The notes under the pieces were generated by a model, which did not search any database, was not told the origin of the DNA, and was given only the letters and a program-made list of their open reading frames with translations. The translations under genes and the position numbers were made by a program. This document shows positions 18,428 to 47,752 of a stretch of DNA of 64,000 bases, in pieces; the stretch's first letter is position 1; the number at the start of each line of letters is the position of its first letter. The stretch is from a virus. The stretch lies in IMG/VR virus record IMGVR_UViG_3300044511_000089, positions 1 to 64,000 of that record; one strand, 5' to 3'.

Positions 18428-19447
18428 TCAGAACTGAACCATGTTCAGCTTGGTAGTTGTCCTCGGCGAGGTCACCGAGCTTTCGATGTAAAGGGTCACG
18501 TTCAACCCGTTCAGCCCTCCCCCGATTGGGTTCGGTGGGATGGCGGAGAACCGGACGTAGATGTCCCCCGGCGCATCGCTCATGTCAACCTCGGCCAAGT
18601 TCATCCCGTCACCTACCGAAGCAATCCTTGCATCGAGTTCAACGAGGCTACGACCCCAAACCCCGGAAGCGCCGACACCGAACATCCACTTGAACACGGT
18701 CATCTTGTCGACAGGGATGTTGGTCGTCACCGAAAAGAGCAGGGTTCCATCGCACCGGACAATGGCGACGCCGAAGTCCACCGTGTAGATGACCGGCTGC
18801 GTCGGAACCGAGTTCCCGATGTAGATGCAGAACGGCACAAGGGTTCCGCCTATCTCGCCAAGCACGTTCACGATGGTCTGGTGGACGAACCCAACCGGAT
18901 TGATGGTGCTCAGGCCATGAACGGCGATGCTGCTTGGAACCCGCGTTCCATTCCTGACCAGCTTGAACCCACGGAAATAGAACCGGCTGGGCAATGGAGC
19001 AGCCACAAACTCGAACACAAGGGATACCTTCGAGTATCCGAATGAGGACAGGTTCGGGAACGCAGCCGACACGTCTACCTCGACCCCGTTCTTCACTTCC
19101 TGCGGCGGGTCGGTCATGGTGATGGGCTTTACATTCCCGCCTGTTGCGAAGGTGTTCGCAGCACCAGCAGAACATGGTGACGATGGGGCCGGAGGTTCAT
19201 CTGGCGGAACGACCGTGATGATGACAGGGCCGGGCGGCGGTTTATCCGATGTGACCTCCGTGACGACCCTTGACTCATCATCGGACTGGACATCGACGAT
19301 GAGCAGGTCGTTGTCCACCCTGAAGTCATCATTCTTCTCTCCGTTGACGACCACACCATTGGTGTAAGCCGAAGCCCCGGTCAGCCTGTAGGGAGGCTCG
19401 TTCACCGCCCGGTGATAGGGTGGATACGGTGAAGGCGGGTAGGTCAT
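18428..19447 (-). CDS. Fibre-like protein with Pro-Tyr N-terminal tag
   Basis: A 339-residue beta-rich protein. The N-terminus YPPSPYPPYHR resembles that of the late gene at 46282-46641 (WPPSPIPPYTR), which suggests a shared anchoring tag. A Pro/Asp-rich linker covers about residues 75-95, followed by a jelly-roll-like region. Its start codon shares one base with the stop of the giant gene. Role in the virion is inferred from operon position. Confidence 0.55.
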   Translation of the reverse strand: MTYPPSPYPPYHRAVNEPPYRLTGASAYTNGVVVNGEKNDDFRVDNDLLIVDVQSDDESRVVTEVTSDKPPPGPVIITVVPPDEPPAPSSPCSAGAANTFATGGNVKPITMTDPPQEVKNGVEVDVSAAFPNLSSFGYSKVSLVFEFVAAPLPSRFYFRGFKLVRNGTRVPSSIAVHGLSTINPVGFVHQTIVNVLGEIGGTLVPFCIYIGNSVPTQPVIYTVDFGVAIVRCDGTLLFSVTTNIPVDKMTVFKWMFGVGASGVWGRSLVELDARIASVGDGMNLAEVDMSDAPGDIYVRFSAIPPNPIGGGLNGLNVTLYIESSVTSPRTTTKLNMVQF

Positions 19448-22400
19448 CAGAACGCGAACGCCCTGTCGGATGTCCTGCCCATCCCGACGGCGGCGTCAAT
19501 GAGGTTCCGTGAGTTGAGCGGTGGAGCCATTCCGGTAGACCTGCTCTTGCTGGTGCCTGTGAACGGCTTGATGCCGATGGACAGCCCGAAGTGATTGAAC
19601 ACCCTGACAGCATCACTTACGGTGTCGGCCCCGTCAGTGGACATGGCCGAGAGCAGCCGTCGGTATTCACCCTCGCTCGGGGCCGTCCTGAACACCGTCC
19701 GCAACGGGTGCCTTGCGCTGAACGCCCTCTGGACGTAATCGCGCGGGTCGTCGTGACCGGCTTCTCGGGCGGCTTCGATGGCCCCTTGGTAGGCGTCCGA
19801 GAACTCGCCGGGGTCATTGCCATAGGTGGCAAGCTCCATCCTACCAAGCCACGGCGTCACCTTGGTCGGCACCGAATAACCACCCGTTGACTGGCGCACG
19901 TCCATCTTCAAGTCACGGCCTGTGATTCTCAGCCAGTTCCGCGCGTTCAACCGCTGGATGAACCGGGACTCGGCATTGTCCAAGTCCGCCAAGTTGTTCA
20001 CCATCTGGATGTATTGCAGGGCACCACCGCCACCCGCAGCTTGGGCCAGAGGCCGGATGACCCCTGCATAGTCGGCGTCACCTTGGATGAAGAACGATTG
20101 CCCGGCCTTGAACAGGCTCAGCAGCGAGTTCACGCCGATGATGCGGCTGTCCACGGACACCCCACGATTGTCGCCGCCCTGTCCCGTGTTCACCACCGTA
20201 TTGATGGCGTCACCGAACAACCCGAATGTGCCGATGCGGTTGACGTTCTCGAACGCGGCAGCCACCGGGTTCTCACCGCCAAGCAAGCGCACGTTCCTGC
20301 GCCTCCTGAGCAGCTTCTCGTAATACGAATCCACCGCCGCAGACAGGAACAAGCCGCCGAAGAAGGTGATTCCAAGCCCCGCTATGCCCCCTAGCGCGGC
20401 CTTCATGCTGTTTCGACCCTCGGTGTTGAGCCGGAGGCCCGGTATTGCAACCATGCGCCTCCACGACCAGCCAAGGAGCGGGCTGGAGAACCGGATGATG
20501 GAGTTGTTGAACGCCGCCAGCGGCATCGTGCTGATGTTGTTCTCGGACGATACCTCGCTCATCATCATGGCGTGAATGGCGATGGCCGTCTTGTTGGTCA
20601 GTTGGTTGGTGTCGCCCCGCTCCCGCCGTTCGATGGCGTCCTTTGCAATCGTCTTGAGGTCCAGCCCCCAATTCTTCATGTCAGCGTCGAACCGCATGAA
20701 GGAATCCTTCCTCAGGCCGGTGTAGCCCATCGTCTCGCCGGTTATCTCGGCGTCAGGGTCGCCGTCAAGAACCTCCATCGCCCTGTTGATGTAGACCTTG
20801 GCCAGCTTCCATGTCCTGAACGTGAGCACCTTGTTCGCCACAATCGCCGAGAAGCTGAACGGGGCAAAGGGTCTGATGAGGGTGTGCTTGGCCTCCCCGC
20901 CAGCCTTGCCCACAGCGAACCCGAGCACGTCCTGAATCCCACGGAACACCTGAGCCGAACGCTGCTCCCCTTCAAGCGGGTAACGCACGTCGGTCAGCTT
21001 CTTGACGGCAGCCGGGTCGGTCAGCTTGAGTTCCTCCCAAAGCTTTTGTTCCTCGGACTCGTTCTGCCATTGCAACCCGATGGCTTGAACCAGCGAATGG
21101 GCTATCTCTACCCCGGCTTCGGGCACCGTGCCGCCCACAGCCTTCAACACATCACTTCCTGCCCCCCAACGGAACGACAGGTCAACCAGCGCACCCAACT
21201 GAGCGATGGCTGACCCAATCTGGTTCACCATCATGCCCGCCAAGGTGCTGGAGAACATGAACAAGCCCCGTGTCAGGTGTTCAGGGTGATTGTCACGCCG
21301 GAAGTAGTCAGACAGGCTGTGCTTGGACTCATCAAGGATACCGAACCGTTTCTCCCACTTCACAAGGGTCTTGTAACGCACGTCTCCAAGCTTAGCGCGA
21401 ACACGCGCTTCGTGTTCTGAGGCGGAAAGGACTTCACCGGCAGCCTCCTTGTCTACCTCACGTCGGGCGTTGTCCAGCGCGTCGATGCCGGACTGCACTT
21501 CTTCGGTGAGGTCGCGCCAAGCGTTGGCCAGCGTCCTTTGCCCACGACCGAACGCCGTCTGCGCCGCAATCCTTCTCGCCACCTGCGCGGCCACCCTTTG
21601 GTCGAAGTTGTAGTAGCTGAACCATTCACCGGGCAGGTCTTCGATGACCCTCGGGTTGATGAAGGCGTCAGGGGACATATTCTCAATCCCTGTGACATCA
21701 TTCGCCGCGTCCCCTTCCGCCTCTTTCAGGATGTGGTCGGCATGCTTGTAGTAGTAGCCGAGCCGGTTCAGGACGTAGGCCACGTATTCGGCCCTGCTCT
21801 TGCCGCTCCCCGTCAACTCGTGGAGGTTCTCCGCAAAGGCGATGACGTTCCCGCCAGACTCGTCGAACGCCTTGCGAACAAGGTAAGGGTCCGCCCTATA
21901 GCTCAACGTGTCCTTGTCACGCTTCGATTGAAGGAGCCTTCGGTATTTGACACGGTCACCACCCGATTCCTCCATCGCCTCGGCCTCCCTCAGCGCCGGG
22001 TCGCCACCCACCTTGAATACCTCGAACGCGCTTTCCCGTGGCATTTCCATCAACGGCCTGAGGAACAACGTCAGCACCGTGTCCTTGTAGGTGCCGCCGT
22101 AGAACTTGTTCACCAAGGCTTCAAGGGCGGCCCTGTCATTTTCGTAAAGCTGGTCAGCATCGTCGAAGTTCATGTCCGACCAGCCGATGTCGCGCAGCGT
22201 CCTGACCATCATCTTGAACCTTCGGTGCAGCGTTTGCGGGAAGGTGTAGGAACCCTTCGGTATATGCCTGCGGATGGCCGTCTCGTATTTGCCGGTCGCA
22301 GGGTTGAACACTTTCAGGGATTCATCCTCAACCCCTATCCCGCTGCGCTCAACCTTGTCCATCGCCCAATCCATGAACTCGGACTGCATGTCAACGAGGT

Positions 22401-25400
22401 CTTTGAGCGCCGAACGCCATGCCTCGGGGTCGGCTGACACGATGTGCTTCGTGCCCTCGTTGTCCATCAGCATCTTCATCACCCTGTTCCAGATGGCCGA
22501 GGTCAACGCAGAAGGGTTGTCGGCATACTTTTCCTCAAGGTCGTAGTTGTATTGCAGCGCGTTCCTGACCGGGTCGAGCATGTGCTCCCGCAGGAAGGCC
22601 CGCTTGTCGCTCACCCATTCCGGCATCAAGGCCAAGACATGGTTCTCCAAGTCGAATATCCTGCGACCGTAACGCTCGTGAGTGTTCCTGAACTCGTAGT
22701 CCAGCGTCTGGAACTTGTGCCCCATCACCATGATGGCCCGCGCGATTCCTGTCCCGAACGCATCGGCAATCTTCTTCCAGACCGGGGCGAACCCAAGCTC
22801 CATCATCAGCTTCTCCGACGCCGCCACGTTCACCCTGATATGGTGGTTGTCGGCCAGAATCCTGAACTGACGCTTGATGTATTCGTAGTCCGAGTCCAGT
22901 GCGCCCTCGTCCCCTGATGCAGCCCGTTCCTCCCTTGCCAGCATGAACTCCTTCATCGACAGGAGCCACCCTTCGACCTCGTCCGGGTTGGTCACGGTGC
23001 CCTTGTTGCTGAGCCGCAGCGTCTTCCTGCTGCCCTCGGACACAAGCTGTTCACGGGTCGCATCAGGCGAAGGCGGAACAACGACGGTCGCCTTGTCCAA
23101 GAACTCGAAGTCGGCGCTCAACGACAGGCCAGCGTTCAACCTGCTGACGTGCGTGTTGAGAACCTTCAGTGCCGCCTGCCCCATCTTCAGCCTGCTCTGG
23201 AGCCGTTCGTGCGCGCGACGTGCGTTCCGCAGGTCAACCTTGGCCTTCAGATGGGCGTTACGGTAGCGTTCAGCGATGGTTGCAGTCCTCTTGAGGTCGC
23301 CCACCGACGACACCAGCGCCCGCTTGTCACCCCTGTAAACGTCCCTGTCAGCGTCAGCGACGGACTTCGCGATGTCCACACGAGCCGCCCCGTCCTGATG
23401 TTTGCGCAACTCAATCGCCGCCATCGTCCGCATGTGCGTCTTGGCGAAGGCGATGATGGAGGCGGTCATGGCGACCGAACGCAGGCTGCCATCCACCAGT
23501 TCGGCATAGGCAGGGTCCGCCTTGAGCGCCGCGATGATGTCTGCCGGTGAAGCCGTGAAGTCGATGGTCGGGTCGAGCGCCAGTTGCTCAAGAACCTCGA
23601 ACAGGCCGTCCGGGTTCAGCCCGCTGTCCTTGCCGAACAGGTCATGGAAGGTGTCACCGTATTTCTTGAGTGTGGCCGACGGGTCGAGCACCTTCATCAC
23701 CTGCATCACCAGCGACTCGCGCTTCGTCCTCCCTTCAAGCTGGCTGAACATCCTGCGAATCTCGCGCTTCATGGCGCTGACAGCGTTCGCAGCCGCATAC
23801 AGCCAGTCGGCGTAATGGGCTTGCTCGGCTGCAAACTCATCCTCGGCCTTCACCAACACCTTTCCTGTCCTGATGATGTCCGACATGGTTTCAGTCATCA
23901 GGCCAGCCAGTTTGCCAGCCGTCTTCTGCATGGCCCTCGCCGCCTCACCGATGGTCTTGTCACGGGCAGCCTTCGACCTGAACCCGTCCAGACGCTTCTC
24001 AGGGTCGAACTTCACAGGGTCGCCGGTGGACTCCCGCTGCTCGGCCAGAGCCTTGTTCATCTCGCGCGGGTCGTCCATGTTGAGCAGGCTCAGCACATGG
24101 TCGAGTGGGGTCGCCTTCTTCTTGCGCTTGGCCATGTCGCCGTTGTAGACCGCCAAGACCTCGGGGTCGGTGGACACGGCGGTCACGGCGTCGAGCAGCG
24201 TGTTGTTCTGCGCGGCAATCATCTCGACCGCCGTGGTCCTGCTTACGGTCGGTGTCCTTGGAGCCGCTGGCATTGCATGAGTCTGCGACCCAAGCCTTGA
24301 CAGCACAGGCATCGTTTCCACCATGAACTTCTCTTTCTTAGCGTCGACCACCTGCAACACATCCGATGCCGTCGCCATGATGTAGCGCGTGGCTTCTGCT
24401 ACCTCATTGGCTGACGGGAGAACCCGCTTGAGGTCGGGCCTGTCTTTTAGCTCAGCCTTATAGCTGGCCTCCATCAACCCCACCAAAGCCTCAATAACCC
24501 TTTGAAGGAAGCCGTTGATATTCTGAAGGATGGTCGCCAGCGCAGACCGCCTCTCTGCAACAGTCGCTCCCTTGTCCTTCAGTATCTTGCGCGCAGCATC
24601 CAATGTTGCGCCTGTCGATGTGTTGGATGTCGGGTCGCTCACACTGAACCTGCGCGGGTCGAAAAGGAATGCCACGAACTCGTGAAGGTTGGTGAGTTCG
24701 TAAGGAAGAACGACGTCCTCCTGTGCAAGCTCACCAAGAACACCCTGCCTGAACGATAAAAGCGCCTCGTCGTAGAGTTGTTGTAACCGTTCCATTGCAG
24801 ACCGCTCATCGGCGCTCAGTGTCTCTGGAGCGACGTTGTATCTGTGAATCAGCCTCGATGAGACGGCGTGGATGCACTCGTGTATCAGTGTCTGAATGGT
24901 GTAGACATCCAGCAGGTCGTCCGGGTCTAGGTTCGTTACAGCACGAGCTAGACGGAATGACTGGAGGTAGAGGGTGATTCCGCTGGTGGAATTGTTGTAA
25001 GTCCCCATCCAAACCGGGTCCATGTGTGTATTGAGGGTTATAGGGACGTCGTCGTGTTTCAACAGCCTGACAAGCGCCCGAGCGACGACAGCCTCAGCGC
25101 GTCGTGTCTCGGTTTCCTTGGCTGCCCCCCTTTCCATGTCAGCGTTGAGAATGGTAACCAATCGCTCCATCACAGCATGCGCACTTAGTGTGCCGTCCTT
25201 ATTGGTTGCGTTCGGGAACACTTCCTTTCTCAGCTTGGTGGCGATGCCATCCACGGCCTTGGCTGACACCTGTTCGTGAATAGCGATTCTGGCCGTGTCC
25301 ATCGCTTGCATGGCAGACATGCGACTTGGCCGCGCGCCGTGCTGCTCAAACTCACCTGCACTTACGCTCCACCGGAACGACCATTCGCCTTCCTGCACTA

Positions 25401-28400: not shown

Positions 28401-31400
28401 TGCCGAGCCGCTTCATGTCGACGAGGAACCGGCTCCTGATGATGGGCGGAGACGGGGTGACAATGAGAACCTTCTTGCCCGTCCTCTTGGCAATCTCGTT
28501 CGCCACGACCAGTTCGGTCATGGTCTTTCCAACCCCTGTCCCGTCAGCCAGCATGAACGCCCTCAGCCTCAATGTCAGGAACCTGTGCAGCGCGTAGTTG
28601 ACCGCCACCCTTTGGTGCGGGGTCAGGATGGGATAATCCGTTGACCGCAGGAAGGACGGGATGCCGGTCGGAAGGAGCTTCTCACCGGGCCAAATCAATG
28701 GCGGGCGCTTCCCGTATTTCTTCTCCGCCTCGATGGTGCGCGGGTCTACGCCTTTACGAACAGGGGGCTTAGTGGGTTCTTTCGGCTTTGTTCCTCCAGA
28801 AACGCTTCCGCCCCCGGATGTCCCGCCAGTGCCAGCCGTTCCAGAAACTCCAGTTTGCTTACCTCCGCCGGTATCGGTGGTATCGGTGCTCCCGGCGGCC
28901 AGTCCTCCCGAAGCTCCTCCATCAGAGACTTGCGTGGCCCATTGGGTCGACGCGATGACCGCTTGCGTGACTCTTTTGACGTCGGCTTCATGGCTTATCC
29001 CGCTGATGTTGACCTGTTGCGGCGCTTGCTTGTGAACGTGTCTAAGAATGGCCGCCGCCGTATTGTAAACCTGTTCGAGCGCATGCACAAGAGCCGTGAA
29101 CACCTGCTGGCCCAGTGTGGCGGCGTGCTCAAACAATGCCTTCCCGACCGTCTTGATGTCTTGCGCCCCTTTCCGCATCAGGTTGATGGCCAGATTGGTG
29201 AACGCCTTGAACTGCTCCGGTGTCAGCGCCGGGAATGACAGCAAAGCACCGCTTGCTGCGTAAAGTTCCTTTGAGAACCGTCGAAGGATGGCAGAGTATG
29301 TCGACGGATGCGGCAGCGTCTGGCGTGTCATTCCAGCCACGCGCACTAGGTCGGCGATGCTCGGCTGTAGCAGTTCGATGTCCTTGCCGAGTTGTCGCAA
29401 TACGGAATCGTAGGTCGCCGTCGCCATCACCCTGCGGCTCAGCCCACGCACGAAGTCGGTCTTGCCCTGCCCGTCGTAAGCCTTGGCCACGTCGTAGACA
29501 AACCGTTTCAGGAACAACTGGAGGAACGCCTTGTGGTCCTGAGGGATGCTGGAGATGGGCATGCCGCTCTTGACCAGCCAGTCCGACATCTCGTGCCTGC
29601 CCATGACCCGATGTTCCGCAGCCACGGTCTTTAGCAGGGCCGCGTAATCGTTCACAAACCTGTTCAGCAACCTCTCCCTCGTCGCGTTCCTTTCCTTCTT
29701 GGTCTGTCTCAATGCTTGGACCTTGCGCTCGAAGGTGTCCTCCCATGCCGCGTCGAATATCTTCCACGTCAGTTCGCCCTTCTCGGCCCACCATTGCACG
29801 GTGTCCCACAGGGTTGAACCGATTTCCTCAACCCTTCTTCGGGCGTTGTCGTGCGCGTCCTCAACCAAGTCCTCCCTTGGGGCGGTCTTGGCCTCGATGA
29901 TGAGCGACTCGGGAGTGCTCCCCGGTTCCTCGGCTTGGGCTTCTTCCTCAGCCGTCGCTTCGATGGATACCGCTTCTTCCTCCCCCATCTGCTCCTGCCG
30001 CTGTTCCATCATCAATGCGCGCTGCGCTTCCTCAAGAACGGAGTAGCGCGACCGCGTGGTTGCCTGCATGTCACGGGCCGGTTCAGCGAACTCCTTCTCG
30101 AACTGTTCGACCGAGTCGTAAATGCTGTAATACTTCCTGATTCGGTATTTGAACCGGGCCGATGCAATCGGCACGTAGCGCAACTCGCCGTTCTCCATCC
30201 TCTCCGCAAGAATCTCAGGCAGTCTCCTGTTCCACTTTGATTTCCTGTTCTTGGCGTTCTCAGGCCAAATCATCCAGTCCTCGAACGCCCCTCCCTTGGT
30301 GAACCGTCTCAGGAACGACCCGCCAATGACCTTGCCAGTCTGCTTGTCGAGCAGGTAGACGACCTTCTTTGACTCGTGCTCAAGGTGGATGTCGCCCTCC
30401 GTGCCAGCCGACGTCCTGCCTTCGCTGGCGAAGGTGTCCATCAACCTTGGGACGTTGGCGAGTTCGTCCGGGCTGATTTCGTAGAAGGCCGGGACGATGT
30501 GCTTGTCAACCTCGTTCGCCAAGTCTTGGTTCAGGTCCGCTTCCTGCGCCTTCAAGTAATTTCGGGCGACGGCGATGCGTTCGCTCAGGGTGGGCAGGTT
30601 CGGGCCGGGACGTTCATCCGAACCCTTGGTCCTGAGTTCGTCCTCAAGTTCCTTGATGAGCTTCAGCGTTTCCTCGATGCCAGCCACTCGCTTTTCGAGG
30701 ACCGCCTTCGCCCCTTCAAAGATACCGTATTCCTTGATGATGGAATCCACCCTGTGCTTGACCTCATCCGGCGTCACCAAGCGTTCGACGGCACCCTTGG
30801 TCAGCTTGATGCCCGGCTTCACCTTCTCGGCAATCAGCACCGTGTTGTCGAAGTCGATGTCCTCGGGTGTCAGGAGTTCGTGCCCGGTCTTGTGCGCCTC
30901 GACCACCTTGCGCACCCTGCGCCCAATCTTCTCGCGCATCGCCGACCACGCTTGGAAGAACTTGTCGTAGGAGTTCGGGTAGTTCTCCTTGAGATACTGA
31001 AGTATCTCGTCCCTGATGTAACCGAAGGCGGCTTGGTCGCGGTTGAGCGCGCCGAAGAAGTTCTCATTCACTTCGGTTCTCAGGAAGTAAGGTTTGCCCT
31101 CCGGTGCGAACAGCCGGTGCTTCTTGAGCAACTCGACCAGTTCAGCCCCGTTCAACGAGAACATCCAGTTTTCAAAGGCTGCGAAGTAGGCCGGGGCCAC
31201 TTCATCCGGTTGCACATCCTTGATTTGCTTCCTGATGGTCTTGAAGATGTTCACGAACTCGCGCTGCCTGCCGCCTTGAGCGAACTCTGAGAACACCGCC
31301 TGTTGAATCCGCAGCTTCCTCGTCCCCGATTGCTCAATCTCTTTCACGGCTTCGAGTGCCATCCAGTCCACGACATCACCTGCGCTTGCCAGTTCGTCAT

Positions 31401-34400
31401 TGTCGAGGTCGGCTTTCCCAAGCCATTCCAGCATCACCTTGCGATAGGTCGTGACGAAATCCTTGATGGCGTTCGCGGTTCCCTTGGCAGCCTGATACGC
31501 AACGATTCCGGCCCTTATAGCGTGCGGCATCGCGTCCTCGACCGCTCTTATCATCGCCCACGTCACCACACCGGAAATGGGTTCAATGAAGCTGAACAGC
31601 CTTGCCCTGTTCGCCTTCGACCTTGCCTCTGCGTTGGCAAGCATCCGCTTCAACGCGGCTTCAATCGGGTCGTCACCAGCAGCCTTGGCAGCGGCTTCTT
31701 GCTCTGCTTCTTGCTTTGCAGCTTCCTCGAACAACTTGCGGACACGCTCGCCTGCCGCATCAATCATCGCCTCGTCCGCCTTGGCTTCGAGAGCCTCAAC
31801 GTCGGTGGCATCCACCATCCCCACCACCACGGTTCCGTGTTCCGTCTTGATGACCTTGTCCACAACTCGGCCTGCGTCTTCCTTCTTGGCGGGTTCAGCC
31901 TGAGGGACGGCGTCAGCGGGTTTCGCAGGAGATGGGGCAGGCTTGGGTTGCTGCTCCACCACTTGAGTCACAGGGATGGCGTCGTCTGGAACAACCGAAA
32001 GAGCGACAACAGCCTCGGTCTTGCCTTCACGCGCCTTGGCGTCCTCTGCGACCACCTGTTCGGTGGCCTTTGCAAACAGAGCGTCGAGTTCGGGCGTTGA
32101 TGCCGTCGGGGTTACCGGAGCAACTGGTTCGGTCGGTGTCAGCACCGCCATCACCGCGCCCATGTCTATCACCGCTTCTTCCTTGACGGGCTTTTCCTTC
32201 GTCTCCTTTGGCTTTGGAGCAGCTTCCTGCTTCGGCTCGACAAGCTTCCTGTGGGCCGCTGTCGCCTTTGCCATTGCGTCCACCGCCGAGAGCAGCTTCT
32301 TGCGGTTGGTTTCGGTCGGGTTCTTCTTCCACTCCGCCCTGAGTTCCTCGACCTTCTTGAGGGCGGAGGCGAGTTCCGCCTTGGATTCCTTGATGCGCGC
32401 CGCCTGTTTCTTCGTGGCGTCCTCGACCTTCGTGTTCTTGAGCGCCTGAGTCTCGGCGGCCAAAGCCCTTAGCTCGGCGTCCAACTCCTTGTTGGCCTCC
32501 TTGATGCGTTCTGTGTCCTTCGACTTCTTGGCTTCGTCACTCTTTTCCTTCGCGCGACTCACCCTTGTCAACCTGTCGGCGACCTTCTTCTTGCCTGCCT
32601 TCACTTCCTCGGCTTCTTCCTCGGGTGCGGCTTTCTTCGCTTCAGTGGCTGGCTCTAGCTTCTTGGTCGGGGCAGGAGCCAGTCCGCGCGTCACCAGCTT
32701 CGCCATCACAGCCCTGACCTCGGGCGTAATCTCAATGTCAATGGCGCTGCCTGAAATGGTCTTGTAGATGTCGTTCATCCACTTCTTGATGGCCGCGAAG
32801 ACCTTCTTCAACGTGGCGTTCTCAGCCCCGCCGTCATAGAGGAACCGCTCGAACCCACGGGCGAACTTCTCCTCGGCAGCCTCGCTCCACACGCCATCCT
32901 TGGCACCGGCCCAATCCTCCACGGTCTTGATGTCCCCGTCCGTGATGCCGCTGCGGTGCTCGGCGGGGACATTACGGTTTAGCAGGTTCAATCGTGCGAC
33001 GTGCGCCATCTCGTGCACGAACGAACTGAAGTCCGCGTTCTTGAAACCCCAGATAATGGCACGACCATCTGCGGCGATAGCCACCATCGCCTTCGCCCCG
33101 AGACGGGAGCCTTGGAAGAACGTGCTTGCGGTCGGCTCCTGACCCGCTATTCCGCCCGACTCGTAGTGAAGAACCTCGACAGGGGACAGGTCGCGGCCAT
33201 TCACCCCTACGATGTGGATGAGCTTATCGTCGAAGATGACGTAGTTGTAAGTCGCATCCTTTTTAATCCGGTCATAGTGCGCTTGTGCTTCGTCGCGCGT
33301 AGCAAACAGTTGCAAGCCAAGTGACCCCCCTGATACGCGCCATAAGCCGCCGTCCTCCTGATGCTGTTCTGGAGGTGTGACGCGGCTGAACTGGTCCTTG
33401 TAGCGGATACCCTTGACACCGTGTGCACGCAACGCTTTGGACGCCACGCGCTTGTTGTAGTGCGTTTCGGGGCCGTATCCGACCAGATAGTTGTATGCGA
33501 ACCCCCCATTCGCATTCAACTCTTTAGACACGTCATCGTCCGGTGCCACCCCTAACGCATCGATGGCCTTCTTTACGACATCGGGTTGTTCACCAAGCGG
33601 TGCATCCCAATCGAGCAACTCATCCACGTTGGCGTCCACTGACACCTTGTAGATTGGGGTCTTCTGCCATTTCCACTGTATGCCGCGCTCCTTTAGTGCC
33701 TCAGGGTTTCGCTCTAGTTCATACAGAATATCCCGCACCTGAGCCAGCGCGTCTTCTAACTCTGTGTCTACGGGTGATGATGGAAACCCGGCTGCTTCCC
33801 TGTGTTTTTTGACGTCTATGGCTATATCCAGTCCCTTACGAGCAAAGATGACGTCCTCAAGCGTTACGGGTCCATCCTCGCTAACATCTCTGCGCTGCTG
33901 AATCGCACTCCATAGCCGATTGGCCACATGGTGATTTAGTAGCACATCCTCCGTTAGAGGCCGGTTGTTCTTGTCCACCACGCTTGCGCCAGACAGTGGC
34001 AGTCTGTCTGACATCTCGTCCTGATATTGCTTTGCGACGGCGGGTGATTGGGCAATGTAGATGCCCCAGCCGAATGACGCAGTGCCCTGACCGTTGCCAA
34101 TGAACTTAACCAGAAGCCTTCGCTCCTGAGGATTCTTCTGGTTTAGAATGTCGGCATAGGATGCGTGCAACCCTTCAAGCTGAAGCAGGATTCCGCCGCC
34201 ATCGAAGTCCTTCGGTATCTCCGCGCTTGGCGCTGCGATGGCCAGCCTGTTGAGCGGTATGCCCATCGCCTTGGCCAGTGCGACAGCCGCCTCCGCTTGG
34301 TCGTCGTCCAGATGGAACGCCTTCTTCAGGATGCCGCGTGACACCGCATGGATGTCCTTCGATTCCTCCCATGCCTTCTGCTCGGCGTCCTTCTTGCGCT

Positions 34401-37400
34401 TCTTGGCCTCGGCCAGCAACGCTTCGTTCTCCTTGATGAGCGGCCAATACTTCGCCGTGAGGTCGGGATACTCAAGGATGCCAGAGCCGACTTCCTTGTC
34501 CTTCTCAGCCAGTTCAATGACCCGTTCCCTGTGAAACGCCTCGATTTGCGGAAGATGCGCCTGTATCCATTGAGAGGAAGCCGTGGCAGACAGGAGACTA
34601 ATCAACCCGTCCAGCGTGGTGTGGGGAAGGATGATGTAACGCGACAGGATGCTCCTGAGTTCCGGGTCGATGGCCACCGGCGGTGGGGCCGTGGCGGGTG
34701 CTGGCTGTGCGGCGGCCTCCTTGTCGGCATCCGCCTTGACCCGTTCCCAAATCCTCTGCGCCCGTTTCTCCGAGATGCGTCCACGATACTTCCCGTGGAT
34801 GCCCTCGGCTGACAGCATCCCGGTTCCCTTGCTGGCGAAGTATTTGTTCGTCGCCTTGACCTGCGCAACGAGGTCGTCGTCCAGCTTGTCCGATTCAGCC
34901 TTCAACAGTTCGTAGGCGGCCCGCTTCTTTTCCTCGACTTGAATGGCGTGCAAGTCGCCTTCACCGGCTGATTCTTCCTCGACGAGGGTGGCAAGGCTTC
35001 CAAGCTGCCGTTCGGTAAGGCCGAGCTTGGTCTTTACTTCGGACGTGATGCGGCTCACCAGCTTGGCGTTGCTCGCCTCGGAAGGCTTCTTCTTCGGTTG
35101 CGCCACCTTCTTGGCAGGCTCCTTCACAGCCTCCTTTGCAGGTGCCGTCACCTTTTCTGTCTTCTGCGCGACCTTCGGTGCAGGTGCAGGAGTAGGAGTA
35201 GGAGCCACAGCCTTGGGCTTCGGTGGGGCCGCTACGGTTTCCTCTTTCTCCGAAACCTTCAGGCCACCCACACCAAGGTCGGACGGATGGTATTGGTACG
35301 CGCTCTTTGACCCTTCGGGGACTGCCTCGACAAGCTCCGGGCTGATGATGTCCGTGACGGTGACGTTTTCGCGCACCATCTCGTTGTTCAGCTTCCTGCG
35401 TCCCGTGGTCTGCTGGCCAATCGTGATGGCGACACCCTTGTCGTCGACCAGTGTTGGAACCTTCCGCGTGATGGCCGGTGCTGGCTCAGGCTCAGCCGGT
35501 TCTTCGGCTGGCTTCGCAGCCTCGGGGACAGGCTGGATTTTATTCAGCAAACCGATTGCGCCTTCCTTGACCTTCTTCTGTTCCTCAGGCTTCAGGTCGG
35601 CGAATGGCCGGTGGATGTCGGGCGCGTCCCCAATCAACTGCTTCCGCTCGTCCACGTCGGACCCGTTCCAGATGTGCGCCGCAGCCTCGTCCTCGGTGAA
35701 CTTGCCGAACACCTTCTTGACCTTCCAACGACCGTTCGCGTCCAGTGACTGTGTTCCATCCTCGTTGAACTGGACCGCAAGGACAGGCTGGTCGCTGCGC
35801 TTGCCCGCCTCGTCCACGGTGTAAATCAGCCCGCCAAGAATGGCCGCCTTGCCTCCATAGTATTGCTCGAAATTGTCCTGTGTCAGAACCGTGTCCCCAT
35901 CAAGGACAAGCTCGCCGTTGAACCGAATCCCGGTATCAGCCTCCGGTGTCGGTGTAGGTGTCACCGCTCCGCTGGCAGCAGGTGTTCCGGCAGGCGGCGT
36001 TGCGGTTCCAGCAGGAGCGCCAGCAGGTGGGGTCGCGGGGCCAGCAGGAGCGCCAGCAGGTGGCGGTTCCTCGGTCGCCGGTGGTTCGGTTCCAGTGTCC
36101 TCCGTTTTGGGCGCTTTCCGTGTGGGCGGTGGCTTCCTGTGAACCAAGGCCGAGAACGGGGAACTGATGCCGACACCCGCAGCGCCACCAATCGCGCTGT
36201 TGATGACCCTGTCCACGTTGTCGCGCGTCCACACGATTTCCTTCTTCGCAGCGTGCGCCTCGGCAGCGATGTTGATGACCTCCTGCAACCCTTCCGTGAT
36301 TGCCTCCGAAGGGATGCTATCCGCCGCGTCTTGAATGACGCGAACAAGATAATGCTTCGCTTGTTTCTGGCCCAACCCCGGAAACTTCAGGGCAAGCGCC
36401 TTGGCTGATACAAGGTTCTGGACGTTGTTTGGCAGCATGTCCAGAGAGCCGACGGCCAGACCGTAGGTCAGGGCGTAGAACAACCTGTCCGATTCCGGGA
36501 TGTCCGGGTTGGCCATGAGGTTCTGGTAGACCTCGCCCTGCCCAAGCGCCGCCGAGTTCGCCATCACCACGCCTCGGGAAGCCCACAAGCCCTTTGTCGC
36601 GTTTATCTCCTGAGTCAGCAGGCTCCTGCTTATGGGTGACAGGGCCGCCGCTCCAATCCGCCCCTCAAGTGCGTCGGTCAGTTCTTTCTTAACCACGGCT
36701 TGAGCAGCGTCGGTCAGCCCGTGTCCAATCTCCTTGGCGACTGCCTTCTTCAAGAGGCTCTTGACCGCCGACTTGCCAAGGAAGCCACCGATAAACCCTA
36801 CCGGCGCAGCTTCCGGCCCTGCTGCGCCTGTACTTATCAACGCCCCTGCTACGCCCGTGGCTGTGGACTCAACAATGGACGGGAACACTTGGCCCGCTTG
36901 TGAAGCGAGATACTTGGCAAGCGAGGAAGCTGAATCAACGTCCCTGTAGCTTGGAACGGCTGGCCGCAGGTCTTCCCTCGTCGCCTGTGCCTCGGCCTTG
37001 TGCGCCAGCTCACCGAAGAACTTCTGCCCACCCTCGAAGTCAGCGACCGCACTCGCCAACTGACCGAAAGAGGCGATGGTCGACCCGAGACTGTAGGTGC
37101 CAGCCTTGATGCCCTTGACACCCTCGGCGATGACACCGCTGCTCGGGACGAATGATTCAGCAAGCTCTCTGGCTCGCTTCACAGCAGGCGACTCGCCCGT
37201 CTTCAGGGCGTTGTAACGCGTCAAGAATGACGGTTCCGCAGTCCTAAGCTCGTCAGGAGAGGCGGCGTCTCCCATCGCCTGAATGATGTCGTTGTCAGTG
37301 CGGGTGTCATTCGGGTAACGGGCGCGATGCTGTCGCAGGAGGATGTCGATGGGACTCTCCCCAGTCGCAGCGGCACCGGGCATCTGAAGCGTGTCGGGCA

Positions 37401-37401
37401 C
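19447..37401 (-). CDS. Giant 5984-residue polyvalent internal virion protein
   Basis: One open frame of 17,955 bases, about 650 kDa, in the place of the ejected gp16-type protein. Seen in order: a hydrophobic N-terminal region (about 150-300) and a Pro/Ala linker (440-490). An ADP-ribosyltransferase-like polyvalent domain follows (about 1080-1400, with FGWGIYIA, KGIRYKD and NYVIFDD), then a zincin (HEMAH near 1463, Glu in RGFERFL near 1518) and Lys/Glu coiled coil (1600-1700). A full SF2 helicase comes next (Walker A DGTGVGKT near 2957, DEVH near 3046, SATP near 3077, QVLGRVSR near 3352). Two tandem zincin modules (HEAVH near 3774, HECIH near 4177) and a long helical tail with a membrane-like segment near 5678 complete it. 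Polyvalent proteins are thought to enter the cell with the DNA and act on host defences. Domain roles here are inferred. Confidence 0.85.
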   Translation of the reverse strand: MPDTLQMPGAAATGESPIDILLRQHRARYPNDTRTDNDIIQAMGDAASPDELRTAEPSFLTRYNALKTGESPAVKRARELAESFVPSSGVIAEGVKGIKAGTYSLGSTIASFGQLASAVADFEGGQKFFGELAHKAEAQATREDLRPAVPSYRDVDSASSLAKYLASQAGQVFPSIVESTATGVAGALISTGAAGPEAAPVGFIGGFLGKSAVKSLLKKAVAKEIGHGLTDAAQAVVKKELTDALEGRIGAAALSPISRSLLTQEINATKGLWASRGVVMANSAALGQGEVYQNLMANPDIPESDRLFYALTYGLAVGSLDMLPNNVQNLVSAKALALKFPGLGQKQAKHYLVRVIQDAADSIPSEAITEGLQEVINIAAEAHAAKKEIVWTRDNVDRVINSAIGGAAGVGISSPFSALVHRKPPPTRKAPKTEDTGTEPPATEEPPPAGAPAGPATPPAGAPAGTATPPAGTPAASGAVTPTPTPEADTGIRFNGELVLDGDTVLTQDNFEQYYGGKAAILGGLIYTVDEAGKRSDQPVLAVQFNEDGTQSLDANGRWKVKKVFGKFTEDEAAAHIWNGSDVDERKQLIGDAPDIHRPFADLKPEEQKKVKEGAIGLLNKIQPVPEAAKPAEEPAEPEPAPAITRKVPTLVDDKGVAITIGQQTTGRRKLNNEMVRENVTVTDIISPELVEAVPEGSKSAYQYHPSDLGVGGLKVSEKEETVAAPPKPKAVAPTPTPAPAPKVAQKTEKVTAPAKEAVKEPAKKVAQPKKKPSEASNAKLVSRITSEVKTKLGLTERQLGSLATLVEEESAGEGDLHAIQVEEKKRAAYELLKAESDKLDDDLVAQVKATNKYFASKGTGMLSAEGIHGKYRGRISEKRAQRIWERVKADADKEAAAQPAPATAPPPVAIDPELRSILSRYIILPHTTLDGLISLLSATASSQWIQAHLPQIEAFHRERVIELAEKDKEVGSGILEYPDLTAKYWPLIKENEALLAEAKKRKKDAEQKAWEESKDIHAVSRGILKKAFHLDDDQAEAAVALAKAMGIPLNRLAIAAPSAEIPKDFDGGGILLQLEGLHASYADILNQKNPQERRLLVKFIGNGQGTASFGWGIYIAQSPAVAKQYQDEMSDRLPLSGASVVDKNNRPLTEDVLLNHHVANRLWSAIQQRRDVSEDGPVTLEDVIFARKGLDIAIDVKKHREAAGFPSSPVDTELEDALAQVRDILYELERNPEALKERGIQWKWQKTPIYKVSVDANVDELLDWDAPLGEQPDVVKKAIDALGVAPDDDVSKELNANGGFAYNYLVGYGPETHYNKRVASKALRAHGVKGIRYKDQFSRVTPPEQHQEDGGLWRVSGGSLGLQLFATRDEAQAHYDRIKKDATYNYVIFDDKLIHIVGVNGRDLSPVEVLHYESGGIAGQEPTASTFFQGSRLGAKAMVAIAADGRAIIWGFKNADFSSFVHEMAHVARLNLLNRNVPAEHRSGITDGDIKTVEDWAGAKDGVWSEAAEEKFARGFERFLYDGGAENATLKKVFAAIKKWMNDIYKTISGSAIDIEITPEVRAVMAKLVTRGLAPAPTKKLEPATEAKKAAPEEEAEEVKAGKKKVADRLTRVSRAKEKSDEAKKSKDTERIKEANKELDAELRALAAETQALKNTKVEDATKKQAARIKESKAELASALKKVEELRAEWKKNPTETNRKKLLSAVDAMAKATAAHRKLVEPKQEAAPKPKETKEKPVKEEAVIDMGAVMAVLTPTEPVAPVTPTASTPELDALFAKATEQVVAEDAKAREGKTEAVVALSVVPDDAIPVTQVVEQQPKPAPSPAKPADAVPQAEPAKKEDAGRVVDKVIKTEHGTVVVGMVDATDVEALEAKADEAMIDAAGERVRKLFEEAAKQEAEQEAAAKAAGDDPIEAALKRMLANAEARSKANRARLFSFIEPISGVVTWAMIRAVEDAMPHAIRAGIVAYQAAKGTANAIKDFVTTYRKVMLEWLGKADLDNDELASAGDVVDWMALEAVKEIEQSGTRKLRIQQAVFSEFAQGGRQREFVNIFKTIRKQIKDVQPDEVAPAYFAAFENWMFSLNGAELVELLKKHRLFAPEGKPYFLRTEVNENFFGALNRDQAAFGYIRDEILQYLKENYPNSYDKFFQAWSAMREKIGRRVRKVVEAHKTGHELLTPEDIDFDNTVLIAEKVKPGIKLTKGAVERLVTPDEVKHRVDSIIKEYGIFEGAKAVLEKRVAGIEETLKLIKELEDELRTKGSDERPGPNLPTLSERIAVARNYLKAQEADLNQDLANEVDKHIVPAFYEISPDELANVPRLMDTFASEGRTSAGTEGDIHLEHESKKVVYLLDKQTGKVIGGSFLRRFTKGGAFEDWMIWPENAKNRKSKWNRRLPEILAERMENGELRYVPIASARFKYRIRKYYSIYDSVEQFEKEFAEPARDMQATTRSRYSVLEEAQRALMMEQRQEQMGEEEAVSIEATAEEEAQAEEPGSTPESLIIEAKTAPREDLVEDAHDNARRRVEEIGSTLWDTVQWWAEKGELTWKIFDAAWEDTFERKVQALRQTKKERNATRERLLNRFVNDYAALLKTVAAEHRVMGRHEMSDWLVKSGMPISSIPQDHKAFLQLFLKRFVYDVAKAYDGQGKTDFVRGLSRRVMATATYDSVLRQLGKDIELLQPSIADLVRVAGMTRQTLPHPSTYSAILRRFSKELYAASGALLSFPALTPEQFKAFTNLAINLMRKGAQDIKTVGKALFEHAATLGQQVFTALVHALEQVYNTAAAILRHVHKQAPQQVNISGISHEADVKRVTQAVIASTQWATQVSDGGASGGLAAGSTDTTDTGGGKQTGVSGTAGTGGTSGGGSVSGGTKPKEPTKPPVRKGVDPRTIEAEKKYGKRPPLIWPGEKLLPTGIPSFLRSTDYPILTPHQRVAVNYALHRFLTLRLRAFMLADGTGVGKTMTELVVANEIAKRTGKKVLIVTPSPPIIRSRFLVDMKRLGIDLTNFEFSTYDWVRRGAETGALPESSSSSIPNASIGDGDYGVVVFDEVHNMKNLGSGKTLAALDVKADHELLASATPFDKPGGAVVILAKLEEKTIEQMEGELGMIREEEEDAEGKITIKHRPDTSAGYDQDRIDSIIAVKRDGVARNSGFIRRFFPVFSVNPDQPIRKQMIGLSDRLQKEQEAIMEYWEARMAEAKGPYRGRLKAMMLGELARWVEPTKAGEVIKLALNDIRQGKKVVIFADGINDTRIKGLRGRKFKGFINTLTGMLDDVMVTDAKGVRRKPKWVGIFGRHNKEKSMDAFQNGDADIVIATARSGGVGIDLDDQIGHAPRMVYIVTADYAGDVFDQVLGRVSRMMTKSPVDIRLIFSNDAVADRHHEGVLNRKFRTLNAMQHGTELDATDLTASEEAGQSGTIDEVASIPEGVTVTALPNGKFLLTDAVAGTIEGNTDAAEGIIEGSRGDERLRRHYGGAFDFEVVTEPELGWVVNQPALDYLKDKLAPLFEQEDDTGTRIPSVATPVAPRRLTPQQEHEQLGRELNQDAAAPSAMLSEDGMRVEMASAPNDSVLATVFNSTKATRIAEQGGALINGLMTTYAITQDVRSGKFTTTMTRGGVRFETLRDVTYEEAKAYAAQVMKAEADNASAATDFKAALVTAFGEAVAKDGTIDTKATMGVLARHLTKPRRNETARQKRIRQAQRVVAILLERVLPEGLRVVLDDARVKMVEGFGASHGDYDLITGDIALFTRVIVTDSRNRNTMLSVPLDEVADILIHEAVHAASSRLIYRYNSMRETLSRAELAAMHKLEELWEEAVYKFREEAGTKAKLPYGLTNLHEFLALVLDPSQAEYAFGNSGYHEAIESAANKLGYRGPERFILLGRLMQSITGFMHRVIEAVKNLILSQVRRDVAHDLIDRHHVSERELGDALEYLLGTSMRVLNVYNAKREESFFEDIRRKQTPYRAERTGEDVYGSTRHASVEPQSRRWNQDVRIGGYPITMQFELVQEGEWSFRWSVSAGEFEQHGARPSRMSAMQAMDTARIAIHEQVSAKAVDGIATKLRKEVFPNATNKDGTLSAHAVMERLVTILNADMERGAAKETETRRAEAVVARALVRLLKHDDVPITLNTHMDPVWMGTYNNSTSGITLYLQSFRLARAVTNLDPDDLLDVYTIQTLIHECIHAVSSRLIHRYNVAPETLSADERSAMERLQQLYDEALLSFRQGVLGELAQEDVVLPYELTNLHEFVAFLFDPRRFSVSDPTSNTSTGATLDAARKILKDKGATVAERRSALATILQNINGFLQRVIEALVGLMEASYKAELKDRPDLKRVLPSANEVAEATRYIMATASDVLQVVDAKKEKFMVETMPVLSRLGSQTHAMPAAPRTPTVSRTTAVEMIAAQNNTLLDAVTAVSTDPEVLAVYNGDMAKRKKKATPLDHVLSLLNMDDPREMNKALAEQRESTGDPVKFDPEKRLDGFRSKAARDKTIGEAARAMQKTAGKLAGLMTETMSDIIRTGKVLVKAEDEFAAEQAHYADWLYAAANAVSAMKREIRRMFSQLEGRTKRESLVMQVMKVLDPSATLKKYGDTFHDLFGKDSGLNPDGLFEVLEQLALDPTIDFTASPADIIAALKADPAYAELVDGSLRSVAMTASIIAFAKTHMRTMAAIELRKHQDGAARVDIAKSVADADRDVYRGDKRALVSSVGDLKRTATIAERYRNAHLKAKVDLRNARRAHERLQSRLKMGQAALKVLNTHVSRLNAGLSLSADFEFLDKATVVVPPSPDATREQLVSEGSRKTLRLSNKGTVTNPDEVEGWLLSMKEFMLAREERAASGDEGALDSDYEYIKRQFRILADNHHIRVNVAASEKLMMELGFAPVWKKIADAFGTGIARAIMVMGHKFQTLDYEFRNTHERYGRRIFDLENHVLALMPEWVSDKRAFLREHMLDPVRNALQYNYDLEEKYADNPSALTSAIWNRVMKMLMDNEGTKHIVSADPEAWRSALKDLVDMQSEFMDWAMDKVERSGIGVEDESLKVFNPATGKYETAIRRHIPKGSYTFPQTLHRRFKMMVRTLRDIGWSDMNFDDADQLYENDRAALEALVNKFYGGTYKDTVLTLFLRPLMEMPRESAFEVFKVGGDPALREAEAMEESGGDRVKYRRLLQSKRDKDTLSYRADPYLVRKAFDESGGNVIAFAENLHELTGSGKSRAEYVAYVLNRLGYYYKHADHILKEAEGDAANDVTGIENMSPDAFINPRVIEDLPGEWFSYYNFDQRVAAQVARRIAAQTAFGRGQRTLANAWRDLTEEVQSGIDALDNARREVDKEAAGEVLSASEHEARVRAKLGDVRYKTLVKWEKRFGILDESKHSLSDYFRRDNHPEHLTRGLFMFSSTLAGMMVNQIGSAIAQLGALVDLSFRWGAGSDVLKAVGGTVPEAGVEIAHSLVQAIGLQWQNESEEQKLWEELKLTDPAAVKKLTDVRYPLEGEQRSAQVFRGIQDVLGFAVGKAGGEAKHTLIRPFAPFSFSAIVANKVLTFRTWKLAKVYINRAMEVLDGDPDAEITGETMGYTGLRKDSFMRFDADMKNWGLDLKTIAKDAIERRERGDTNQLTNKTAIAIHAMMMSEVSSENNISTMPLAAFNNSIIRFSSPLLGWSWRRMVAIPGLRLNTEGRNSMKAALGGIAGLGITFFGGLFLSAAVDSYYEKLLRRRRNVRLLGGENPVAAAFENVNRIGTFGLFGDAINTVVNTGQGGDNRGVSVDSRIIGVNSLLSLFKAGQSFFIQGDADYAGVIRPLAQAAGGGGALQYIQMVNNLADLDNAESRFIQRLNARNWLRITGRDLKMDVRQSTGGYSVPTKVTPWLGRMELATYGNDPGEFSDAYQGAIEAAREAGHDDPRDYVQRAFSARHPLRTVFRTAPSEGEYRRLLSAMSTDGADTVSDAVRVFNHFGLSIGIKPFTGTSKSRSTGMAPPLNSRNLIDAAVGMGRTSDRAFAF
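24325..26745 (-). repeat. Tandem duplication of a zincin module inside the giant gene
   Basis: Two units of about 400 codons lie head to tail: 25546-26745 and 24325-25545. Shared marks in order are LIHE-x-x-HA-x-SSRLI-x-RYN, then ETLS, then LPY-x-LTNLHEF, then x-I-x-GF-x-x-RVIEA. Both copies keep HExxH and the later Glu. The protein identity looks moderate, so the duplication is old. Confidence 0.8.
36008..36063 (-). repeat. 33-bp coding repeat, Pro-Ala-Gly linker
   Basis: CCAGCAGGAGCGCCAGCAGG occurs at 36008 and again 33 bases on at 36041, with a third degenerate copy next to them. The repeat encodes 11-residue PPAGAPAGxAT units in a flexible linker of the giant protein. Confidence 0.8.
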
Positions 37402-37407
37402 GGCGTG

Positions 37408-39213
37408 TTAAATGTTGTGCAGGAAGAACTGTCCACCCCTCACCTTGTCTCGATACGTGTAAATCATCCTGAGCGCATCAACATCACCTTGGCTGGCGGC
37501 GTCAATCGTCTGCTGGATGAGCAACGGACTCATGCCGTCGCGCGTGGCGAGTTCCCTCATCTTCTGGCCTTCTTCGGGTGAGAAGTTGAAGTCAACGGTG
37601 CCGAACGACTGCATGGCGCGTTGTGCCGATTCAGGGTTCAGTCCGTTGACAGGCGAACCGGCGTCACTACGAGGGCCGCCTTCAAACTTGAGCGGGATAG
37701 CTGGTGTTACAACATCACCCGACGCGCCGCTTCTCTGAGCTTCATTTTGTATGAAGCTTTTTAATGTGCGCTCCCAGAGTTCCATCTCCTGCTTGTGTGT
37801 CAAAGGCTCATCAGTCCGCTGTCTGAATGGATGCTGAAACCTTGGCTTGCTGGCGTCAAAATATGCCCACCTCCAATCCCGTGGCCCGATGCTCGAGATG
37901 CCAGCCATCGGCCCGAGTTGATTCTTTACCACCTCATCTACAACTCCAAGACCTTCACCCCTCATCTTACGGAGCGGTAGAATTTGCCAGTCAAACTCAC
38001 CCGCTGGAAACCCCATTGCCTTTATAATCTCCCCCTGTGTTAAATCAGGCTGTGTCGTTGTGACTGGCGGCGGCTCGGTGCCCGGAGGTTTGGTGCCGCC
38101 TTCGCCTTTCTGCGGGACTTGCGGGACTTGCGGGACTTGCGGTATCGGGAACAGGGTGGGGTCGACCCGGCCCGCGCCATCGCCCGCCGCGCCACCTCCT
38201 GCGCCACCACTCTTGCGATTCATGTATTCAAGAGCGATGATGCGAGCCTCGTTGCTCATTGTGTTGAACTGCTTCTCACCAACCTCCCTATACCACCGGA
38301 GCCTGCTTTGGGTCCGGTCGAAGTATTCCCTGAAGTAAGCCTTCTGCACCAGTGACGCCGATGAGCCGCCCTTCTCGGTCGCTGCGCGGTTGTTGAACTC
38401 ATCGAGAACAGCCGTCAATCCCTGTAGAATCGTGTTCGACTTCTTCTCATCGAGACGCCCGGTGATTCCGGTCGGACTCTTGATGGCGGAAGAAACGAAC
38501 TGATTGAGAATCGTCGCAAGGGAATCTGTCGTTGCCTTCGGGCTTACCGATTCTTCGAGCAACGCCTTTCTGATGCCCTCCAATGCTGTGTGGTCGCGCC
38601 CAAGCTGCATTGCGGCGCTGCTGTTGGCAAAGTCCTTGACGCGCTCCCTTGCTTGGGTCAACTGCATCGACCCGACCATGCGGTTGATTTGCTGTTCAGC
38701 CGCCCGCTCGTCCTTCTCCTGCATCTCCACGAAGTTGATGTAGGAATTGGCCTGCGCCCGGTTGATTTGTGAGAGCAGTTGTGCGTGCAGCGCCGGACTC
38801 TTGACTATATCCACGAAGTTGACCACGCCGTTCTCACGCATGAAGAATGAGACATCAACCCCGTGCTCCAGTGCCTTGTCGCGCAACTTGGAGGCTTGGT
38901 CCAGCCACTCAGATTCTGTCTTTGCTTCTTTTTCACGCCGAAATGCGAGTGCAGCCTCATTCTCCTTCGCCGTCTGCATTTTAACCTCATGCATAAACCT
39001 CGCGTTCTGCATGGCGTAGTCGTGCTGCTGAGCGGCATCCGTCTGCTCTCTCGCGAACATCCTGCGGCTGGCTTCCTTCATCGCCTCCATCTCGCCAGCA
39101 GACCGTTGCTGAGCCAGAGCAAGCCGCATCTGCGCCTCCTGACCGGCACGCCTTCGGATGTCCTCGGACACCTCAAGGATGGGTCTGAACGCGGCGTCAA
39201 AAGGGTTGGGCAT
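37408..39213 (-). CDS. Internal virion protein, gp15-like by position
   Basis: A 601-residue protein. Residues 1-330 are helical and charged, with long coiled-coil-like stretches. Residues 345-400 form a Gly/Pro linker with the repeat QVPQVPQVPQ. The rest is mixed. It stands between the gp14-like and giant genes, as T7 gp15 does between gp14 and gp16, so it may form part of the ejected trans-envelope channel. Sequence similarity to T7 gp15 is not visible by eye. Confidence 0.55.
   Translation of the reverse strand: MPNPFDAAFRPILEVSEDIRRRAGQEAQMRLALAQQRSAGEMEAMKEASRRMFAREQTDAAQQHDYAMQNARFMHEVKMQTAKENEAALAFRREKEAKTESEWLDQASKLRDKALEHGVDVSFFMRENGVVNFVDIVKSPALHAQLLSQINRAQANSYINFVEMQEKDERAAEQQINRMVGSMQLTQARERVKDFANSSAAMQLGRDHTALEGIRKALLEESVSPKATTDSLATILNQFVSSAIKSPTGITGRLDEKKSNTILQGLTAVLDEFNNRAATEKGGSSASLVQKAYFREYFDRTQSRLRWYREVGEKQFNTMSNEARIIALEYMNRKSGGAGGGAAGDGAGRVDPTLFPIPQVPQVPQVPQKGEGGTKPPGTEPPPVTTTQPDLTQGEIIKAMGFPAGEFDWQILPLRKMRGEGLGVVDEVVKNQLGPMAGISSIGPRDWRWAYFDASKPRFQHPFRQRTDEPLTHKQEMELWERTLKSFIQNEAQRSGASGDVVTPAIPLKFEGGPRSDAGSPVNGLNPESAQRAMQSFGTVDFNFSPEEGQKMRELATRDGMSPLLIQQTIDAASQGDVDALRMIYTYRDKVRGGQFFLHNI
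38112..38138 (-). repeat. Three 9-bp tandem repeats
   Basis: GCGGGACTT occurs three times in a row and encodes the VPQ repeats of the Gly/Pro linker. Copy number may vary between relatives through slippage. Confidence 0.85.
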
Positions 39214-46280: not shown

Positions 46281-46281
46281 G

Positions 46282-47673: not shown

Positions 47674-47695
47674 GACTGCCTCTTACAACAAACAA

Positions 47696-47723: not shown

Positions 47724-47752
47724 TCGCCACACACTTCACCCCACTGAAAACC

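What the first reader, a model, noticed from the sequence alone, without database searches (positions are those of the whole stretch)
19447..37401. A 5984-residue single-frame protein, among the largest expected in a phage
One uninterrupted frame covers over a quarter of the window and joins ADP-ribosyltransferase-like, peptidase-like and helicase domains in the gp16-type position. Injecting or threading a protein of about 650 kDa is mechanically striking, and it may be cut by its own peptidase-like domains.
Basis: partly seen in the sequence, partly recalled or inferred. Interest (0 to 1): 0.88.

Follow-up and report, generated by a model that had tools for sequence, protein, structure and literature searches.

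The report
Giant cysteine-free phage ejection protein
An uncultured temperate phage carries one continuous gene for a protein of about 5,984 amino acids that is almost completely free of cysteine and probably travels inside the virus particle into the host, delivering several enzymes at once; it is an extra-large member of a known kind, and its missing cysteines fit a chain that must cross the oxidising outer layers of the cell.

Summary
The reading frame is real: 19447-37401 (-), GTG start, 5984 aa, 658 kDa, no internal stop, coding periodicity throughout. The window is 64000 of 64276 bases of an IMG/VR virus record with terminase, portal and integrase. The gene is third in a T7 gp14-15-16-like ejection cassette, and the same order recurs in relatives found through the portal. 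Their giant frames (about 2,200-4,960 aa) share an all-helical C-terminal module of about 800 aa, while the N-terminal cargo differs. The cargo here includes an SF2/SNF2-like helicase, an ADP-ribosyltransferase domain (supported through relatives) and three HExxH zincin motifs, two of them in a tandem duplicate. It is therefore a very large phage 'polyvalent protein'; a virion-proven analogue, JC1 gp69 (4515 aa), exists. Across 80 related giants cysteine is 0.016%, versus 0.78% in neighbouring ORFs. Three classic podophage cassettes are also (nearly) cysteine-free, while two plasmid polyvalent proteins and P1 DarB are not. That independently supports ejection through the cell envelope. Self-cleavage is untested. 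Kind known, size extreme; the cysteine rule, published for N4-type polymerases, is extended here.

The parts
19447..37401 (-). giant polyvalent / ejection protein gene, 5984 aa, GTG start, 1 Cys
36112..37401 (-). residues 1-430: N-terminal region; residues about 127-420 resemble the N-terminal part of another phage giant (L090)
   Evidence: phmmer E 1.3e-9
33157..34194 (-). residues about 1070-1415: ADP-ribosyltransferase-like domain (GLHAS / GWGIY / NYVIFDD)
   Evidence: alignment A3 with ART-PolyVal proteins; no direct Pfam hit; model too poor to confirm the fold
32662..33084 (-). residues 1440-1580: zincin-type block, HEMAH at 1463, conserved ExFAxxFE downstream
   Evidence: PHROG 9880 E 3.7e-24; tblastn to 18 phage records; alignment A1
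27322..28626 (-). residues about 2926-3360: SF2/SNF2-like helicase, both lobes
   Evidence: Pfam ResIII 1.4e-6, DEAD 1.4e-6, SNF2-rel 3.6e-6, Helicase_C 0.0055
25552..26433 (-). residues about 3657-3950: zincin-like copy 1, HEAVH at 3773
24316..25218 (-). residues about 4062-4362: zincin-like copy 2, HECIH at 4174; holds the only cysteine (4176)
   Evidence: 33% identity to copy 1, E 7e-37
19450..21894 (-). residues 5170-5984: C-terminal module conserved in the portal lineage, predicted all-helical, with the one strong hydrophobic segment (5668-5686)
37408..39213 (-). 601-aa, 0-Cys protein, gp15-like position
   Evidence: position and Cys count
39219..40313 (-). 364-aa, 0-Cys protein, gp14/pilot-like position
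   Evidence: weak phrog_8689 'pilot protein for DNA ejection' E 0.008
51676..54267 (-). portal protein (used to find relatives)
   Evidence: phrog_6547 E 0.001
54743..56269 (-). terminase large subunit
   Evidence: phrog_2 5e-22, Pfam Terminase_6N 1.5e-13
14962..16041 (+). integrase (temperate lifestyle)
   Evidence: phrog_1 1.8e-28

Best explanation
The gene encodes a phage polyvalent protein built like the last protein of a podovirus ejection cassette. It would be packaged in the capsid near the portal with the two smaller cysteine-free proteins encoded just upstream. On infection it leaves through the short tail as an extended or unfolded chain, before or with the DNA. The conserved helical C-terminal module (about 800 aa with one strong hydrophobic segment) is the structural/ejection part that works with the portal and cell envelope. 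The N-terminal 5,000 residues are swappable cargo (ADP-ribosyltransferase, metallopeptidase-like zincins, SF2 helicase) joined by Pro/Ala/Gly-rich linkers, which refold in the cytoplasm and act before phage genes are expressed, most likely against host defence or for early host takeover. Cysteine has been purged because the chain crosses the oxidising periplasm, where disulphides would jam it. Shown: frame, position, domains (ART only through relatives), cysteine depletion, conserved C-terminus with variable N-terminus. Inferred: short tail, packaging, ejection, refolding, targets, and the reason for the depletion.
For: Intact continuous frame. Third gene of a cassette after two Cys-free genes, like T7 14-15-16, P22 7-20-16, N4 52-51-50 and BPP-1 bbp12-11-10. 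Same layout in portal-lineage relatives. C-terminal module found in 11 of 29 records reached through the portal (one of them already in the alignment; many of the rest are short contigs). 1 Cys in 5984 against about 87 expected; cassette 1 in 6949 against about 101, Fisher p 3e-32. 80 related giants 0.016% Cys versus 0.78% in their neighbours. T7 gp15/gp16, P22 gp7/gp20/gp16 and N4 gp50/51/52 all 0 Cys. Contrast: plasmid LPD23 polyvalent proteins 0.32% and 0.73%, P1 DarB 0.40%. Lineage relatives carry Kinase-PolyVal (3.5e-25; 5.4e-21). JC1 gp69 (4515 aa) was found in purified virions with 51 unique peptides (PMC9144972). Cys-free vRNAP as a possible injection requirement: PMC2784036, PMC3715699, PMC3915230.
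Against: No virion data for this phage. Direct Pfam hits are limited to the helicase; the ART rests on relatives. Both structure models were low confidence (pLDDT 53 and 45). Cys-free also occurs in scaffold proteins (T7 gp9, P22 gp8, probably window 49987-51318) and in N4 gp56/gp57, so the signature marks virion-internal proteins rather than ejection alone. A few lineage giants keep 4-6 Cys. No assembly independent of the window spans the gene.
Confidence: 0.78

Rival explanations
1. It is a virion protein that self-cleaves (or is cut by a phage protease) into smaller effectors before or during ejection, so no 658-kDa chain ever crosses the envelope.
For: Three HExxH motifs with intact H-E-H, two as a tandem duplicate, and long Pro/Ala-rich linkers.
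Against: No processing evidence. Cysteine depletion runs over the whole length, as in N4 vRNAP (3500 aa, 0 Cys), though cleaved pieces would show the same.
Confidence: 0.15
2. It is a non-virion, cytoplasmic early protein (defence or counter-defence) made after infection.
For: Polyvalent proteins also occur on plasmids, and the enzymatic domains act in the cytoplasm.
Against: Lies in the structural operon directly after the Cys-free pilot-like genes, with a C-terminal module conserved with the portal lineage. Two plasmid polyvalent proteins and P1 DarB are not Cys-purged, whereas this one is.
Confidence: 0.05
3. The frame is an assembly or frameshift artefact that fuses several genes.
For: Single metagenome record; no second assembly spans it.
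Against: Complete frames of 4956 and 4821 aa at the same place in relatives from other metagenomes; uniform codon-position GC; Cys depletion along the whole length.
Confidence: 0.02

Closest known systems
Phage polyvalent proteins (Iyer et al. 2017, PMC5512222)
   Same: Very large multidomain phage protein combining ART, metallopeptidase-like and SNF2/SF2 helicase domains, thought to be delivered with the DNA.
   Different: At 5984 aa it is far above the >2,000 aa they mention; cysteine depletion is not discussed there (0 occurrences of the word).
DarB-like protein of Bcep22-type podophages (JC1 gp69, 4515 aa; Bcep22 gp75)
   Same: Giant single-frame protein at the end of the morphogenesis module, proven virion-associated in JC1 (PMC9144972).
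   Different: No Burkholderia phage among the tblastn matches; no methylase domain found here.
BPP-1 Bbp10 and relatives (CP2 ORF24, Ab9 CDS16)
   Same: Same HExxH block (31-33% identity), same position after Cys-poor or Cys-free proteins, 0-1 Cys.
   Different: 2052-2839 aa; only this block is shared.
N4 virion RNA polymerase (gp50)
   Same: Giant Cys-free protein carried in the virion and injected; its two upstream neighbours are also Cys-free.
   Different: No T7-type RNAP motif found by a simple pattern.
T7 gp16 / P22 gp16
   Same: Last gene of a three-gene ejection set, Cys-free.
   Different: Four to ten times longer; no transglycosylase domain detected; no sequence match.

Membership tests
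Phage polyvalent proteins | Two or more effector-type domains in one large polypeptide | tested here: met
   Helicase by Pfam above cut-off; conserved HExxH block; ART through aligned relatives
Phage polyvalent proteins | Direct match to a named polyvalent domain (e.g. ART-PolyVal) | tested here: inconclusive
   No direct Pfam hit; 4 of 6 members of its ART alignment do hit; Kinase-PolyVal in lineage relatives
Phage polyvalent proteins | Encoded in a phage structural module | tested here: met
Phage polyvalent proteins | Packaged in the virion and delivered | not testable with these tools
   Precedent only: JC1 gp69 (PMC9144972)
T7 gp16-type ejection protein | Last member of a three-gene internal-protein cassette | tested here: met
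   By position and Cys content:
T7 gp16-type ejection protein | Lytic transglycosylase domain | tested here: not met
   No such Pfam match
T7 gp16-type ejection protein | Sequence homology to T7 gp16 | tested here: not met
   No such record in tblastn
DarB-like (P1 / Bcep22) | DNA adenine methylase plus helicase | tested here: not met
   Helicase present, no methylase hit
N4-type virion RNA polymerase | T7-like RNAP motifs | tested here: not met
   Pattern search for motif B negative; a crude test

The most novel reading that the evidence does not exclude
Absence of cysteine is a general signature of proteins ejected by short-tailed phages, not a quirk of N4 polymerases: purged along the whole chain because it crosses the oxidising periplasm unfolded, and not in polyvalent proteins delivered by plasmids or through a contractile tail. 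This protein is then among the longest known cases and a size test for single-chain threading.
Probability: 0.55. Interest if true: 0.65.

Novelty: new member of a known kind. Interest (0 to 1): 0.5.

Why it matters
It extends single-chain ejection proteins to about 658 kDa and gives a simple sequence test (near-zero cysteine over thousands of residues) that separates virion-ejected giants from look-alikes. The test can nominate ejected effectors, including anti-defence enzymes, across uncultured phages. The conserved C-terminus with swappable cargo suggests a natural protein-delivery platform.

Tried and rejected
Direct Pfam, PHROG and NCBIfam scans of whole halves gave few hits; shorter segments were needed for the helicase. 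PDB sequence search gave only chance hits. The ART model (pLDDT 53) gave no meaningful PDB match; the C-terminal model (pLDDT 45) was not searched. ART-PolyVal and LPD38 as families against the record: nothing. A single-sequence scan of viral contigs with the N-terminal half found nothing; the portal worked. The C-terminal alignment found nothing in genome contigs; the portal alignment found only MAG contigs of mixed phyla, so the host stays unknown. RNAP motif pattern negative. N4-like polymerase and P1-type DarB considered and rejected for lack of the defining domains. The crAss-like giant could not be used for Cys counts because its frame holds 39 stops under code 11. Bcep22's own record was not in the collection under the accession tried. 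The T4 stretch fetched did not contain alt.

Full report
Observation. The frame 19447-37401 on the minus strand is open over 5984 codons (GTG start) with one terminal stop; the product is 658 kDa. Codon-position GC keeps the same order in all 300-codon blocks, so the whole length looks coding. The window is 64000 of the 64276 bases of an IMG/VR virus record that carries terminase, portal, tail genes and an integrase.

Position. On the minus strand the order is terminase, portal, a Cys-free gene (probably scaffold), a capsid-like gene, tail genes, a 364-aa gene with a weak match to ejection pilot proteins (E 0.008), a 601-aa gene, then the giant gene. This is the order of the T7 14-15-16, N4 52-51-50 and BPP-1 12-11-10 sets.

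Domains. The helicase is clear when a 541-aa segment is scanned (ResIII and DEAD 1.4e-6, SNF2 3.6e-6, Helicase_C 0.0055). A block around HEMAH (residue 1463) is shared with PHROG 9880 (3.7e-24) and with 18 phage records including BPP-1 Bbp10; H, E, H and several downstream residues of ExFAxxFE are invariant in a six-sequence alignment. Two further HExxH motifs (3773, 4174) lie in a tandem duplicate of about 300 aa with 33% identity. The ART assignment rests on alignment A3, where four of six members hit ART-PolyVal in Pfam but the window itself does not. The AlphaFold model of that stretch was poor (pLDDT 53) and its PDB search empty.

Relatives. Starting from the portal, records of up to 76 kb were found. 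They hold giant frames at the same place: 4821, 2756 and at least 3162 aa; 2816 and 3031 aa; 4956, 3731, 3256, 3157, 2813, 2804, 2195 and at least 3052 aa, plus contig-truncated ones. What they share is the last about 800 residues, predicted entirely helical though with low confidence. The rest differs: two carry Kinase-PolyVal. I read this as a conserved delivery module with swappable cargo. The lineage has at least 230 portal-bearing stretches in IMG/VR, while the portal has no match in the phage records.

Cysteine. The protein has one cysteine, at 4176, inside the third HExxH motif. The other genes of the window that I counted average 1.45%, so about 87 would be expected; for the three-gene cassette 1 is seen and about 101 expected (Fisher p 3e-32). 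Base composition by codon position alone would give about 60. In 80 IMG/VR giants that carry the HEMAH-type block, cysteine is 0.016% of 189,467 residues, against 0.78% of 200,741 residues in the other ORFs of at least 200 aa in the same loci. The sequences are related and the neighbours include other ejection proteins, so this is a description, not a phylogenetic test. Known ejected podophage proteins fit: T7 gp15 and gp16, P22 gp7, gp20 and gp16, and N4 gp50, gp51 and gp52 have none; T7 gp14 has one (which of these are ejected is established knowledge, not tested here). Two contrasts point to the route: two plasmid polyvalent proteins with the same ART family have 0.32% and 0.73%, and P1 DarB, delivered through a contractile tail, has 0.40%. 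The contrasts are few. A 4899-aa frame of Pseudomonas phage USP_25 has 0 Cys and a 5555-aa frame on a Massilia plasmid record has 1. Scaffolds are also Cys-free, so the signature is not unique to ejected proteins. For N4-like polymerases the absence of cysteine and its possible link to injection are published (PMC2784036, PMC3715699, PMC3915230, PMC10747016); the polyvalent-protein paper does not use the word cysteine, and two paper searches for the general statement gave nothing, in a library that lacks most subscription journals.

Mechanism. Best supported: packaged, ejected as one chain through the short tail and periplasm, cargo refolding in the cytoplasm to act before phage expression. 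Virion presence is shown for the analogue JC1 gp69, 4515 aa (PMC9144972), not here. Self-cleavage is possible but unsupported.

Verdict. Real, correctly located, and a very large member of a known kind. The added value is the cysteine signature and the conserved C-terminal module with variable cargo.

Noticed in passing
N-termini of giants in L040-L119 and L218-L227, e.g. L097, L117, L116, L101, G002: Many phage giants begin with a short motif in two tandem copies (e.g. KIDISVFDEAVK / KVDVSAFDEAVK; LPTADEFF twice; DLLAGIP / DLLAGVP): 35% of 84 N-termini have a repeat with z > 3 against 3% of 168 internal control windows. A possible docking or packaging tag; the window's protein does not show it clearly (z 1.7).
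   Followed up: partly
window 2946-4148 (+) and 5363-6214 (+): CobS-like AAA+ ATPase (phrog_249, 4.2e-25) near a CobT-like protein (phrog_17276, 4.1e-6): a MoxR-type ATPase/VWA-like pair in a phage.
   Followed up: no
window 45324-46391 (-): Tail-fibre-like protein with YadA_head repeats and a K1-lyase_C domain, no cysteine.
   Followed up: no
window 49987-51318 (-): 443-aa Cys-free protein between portal and capsid-like gene, probably scaffold; Cys-free equivalents stand at the same place in relatives.
   Followed up: partly
L230:1777-18444 (Massilia violaceinigra plasmid record): 5555-aa 'PLxRFG domain-containing protein' with 1 Cys after a 567-aa protein with 0 Cys: the 'plasmid' may be a phage-plasmid.
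   Followed up: no
Viral contigs, portal alignment A5: At least 230 stretches encode relatives of this portal, while the portal has no match in the phage records: a large, apparently uncultivated podovirus-like lineage.
   Followed up: partly
window 47648-49813 (+): 721-aa frame antisense to the capsid-like gene, probably a mechanical overlap.
   Followed up: no
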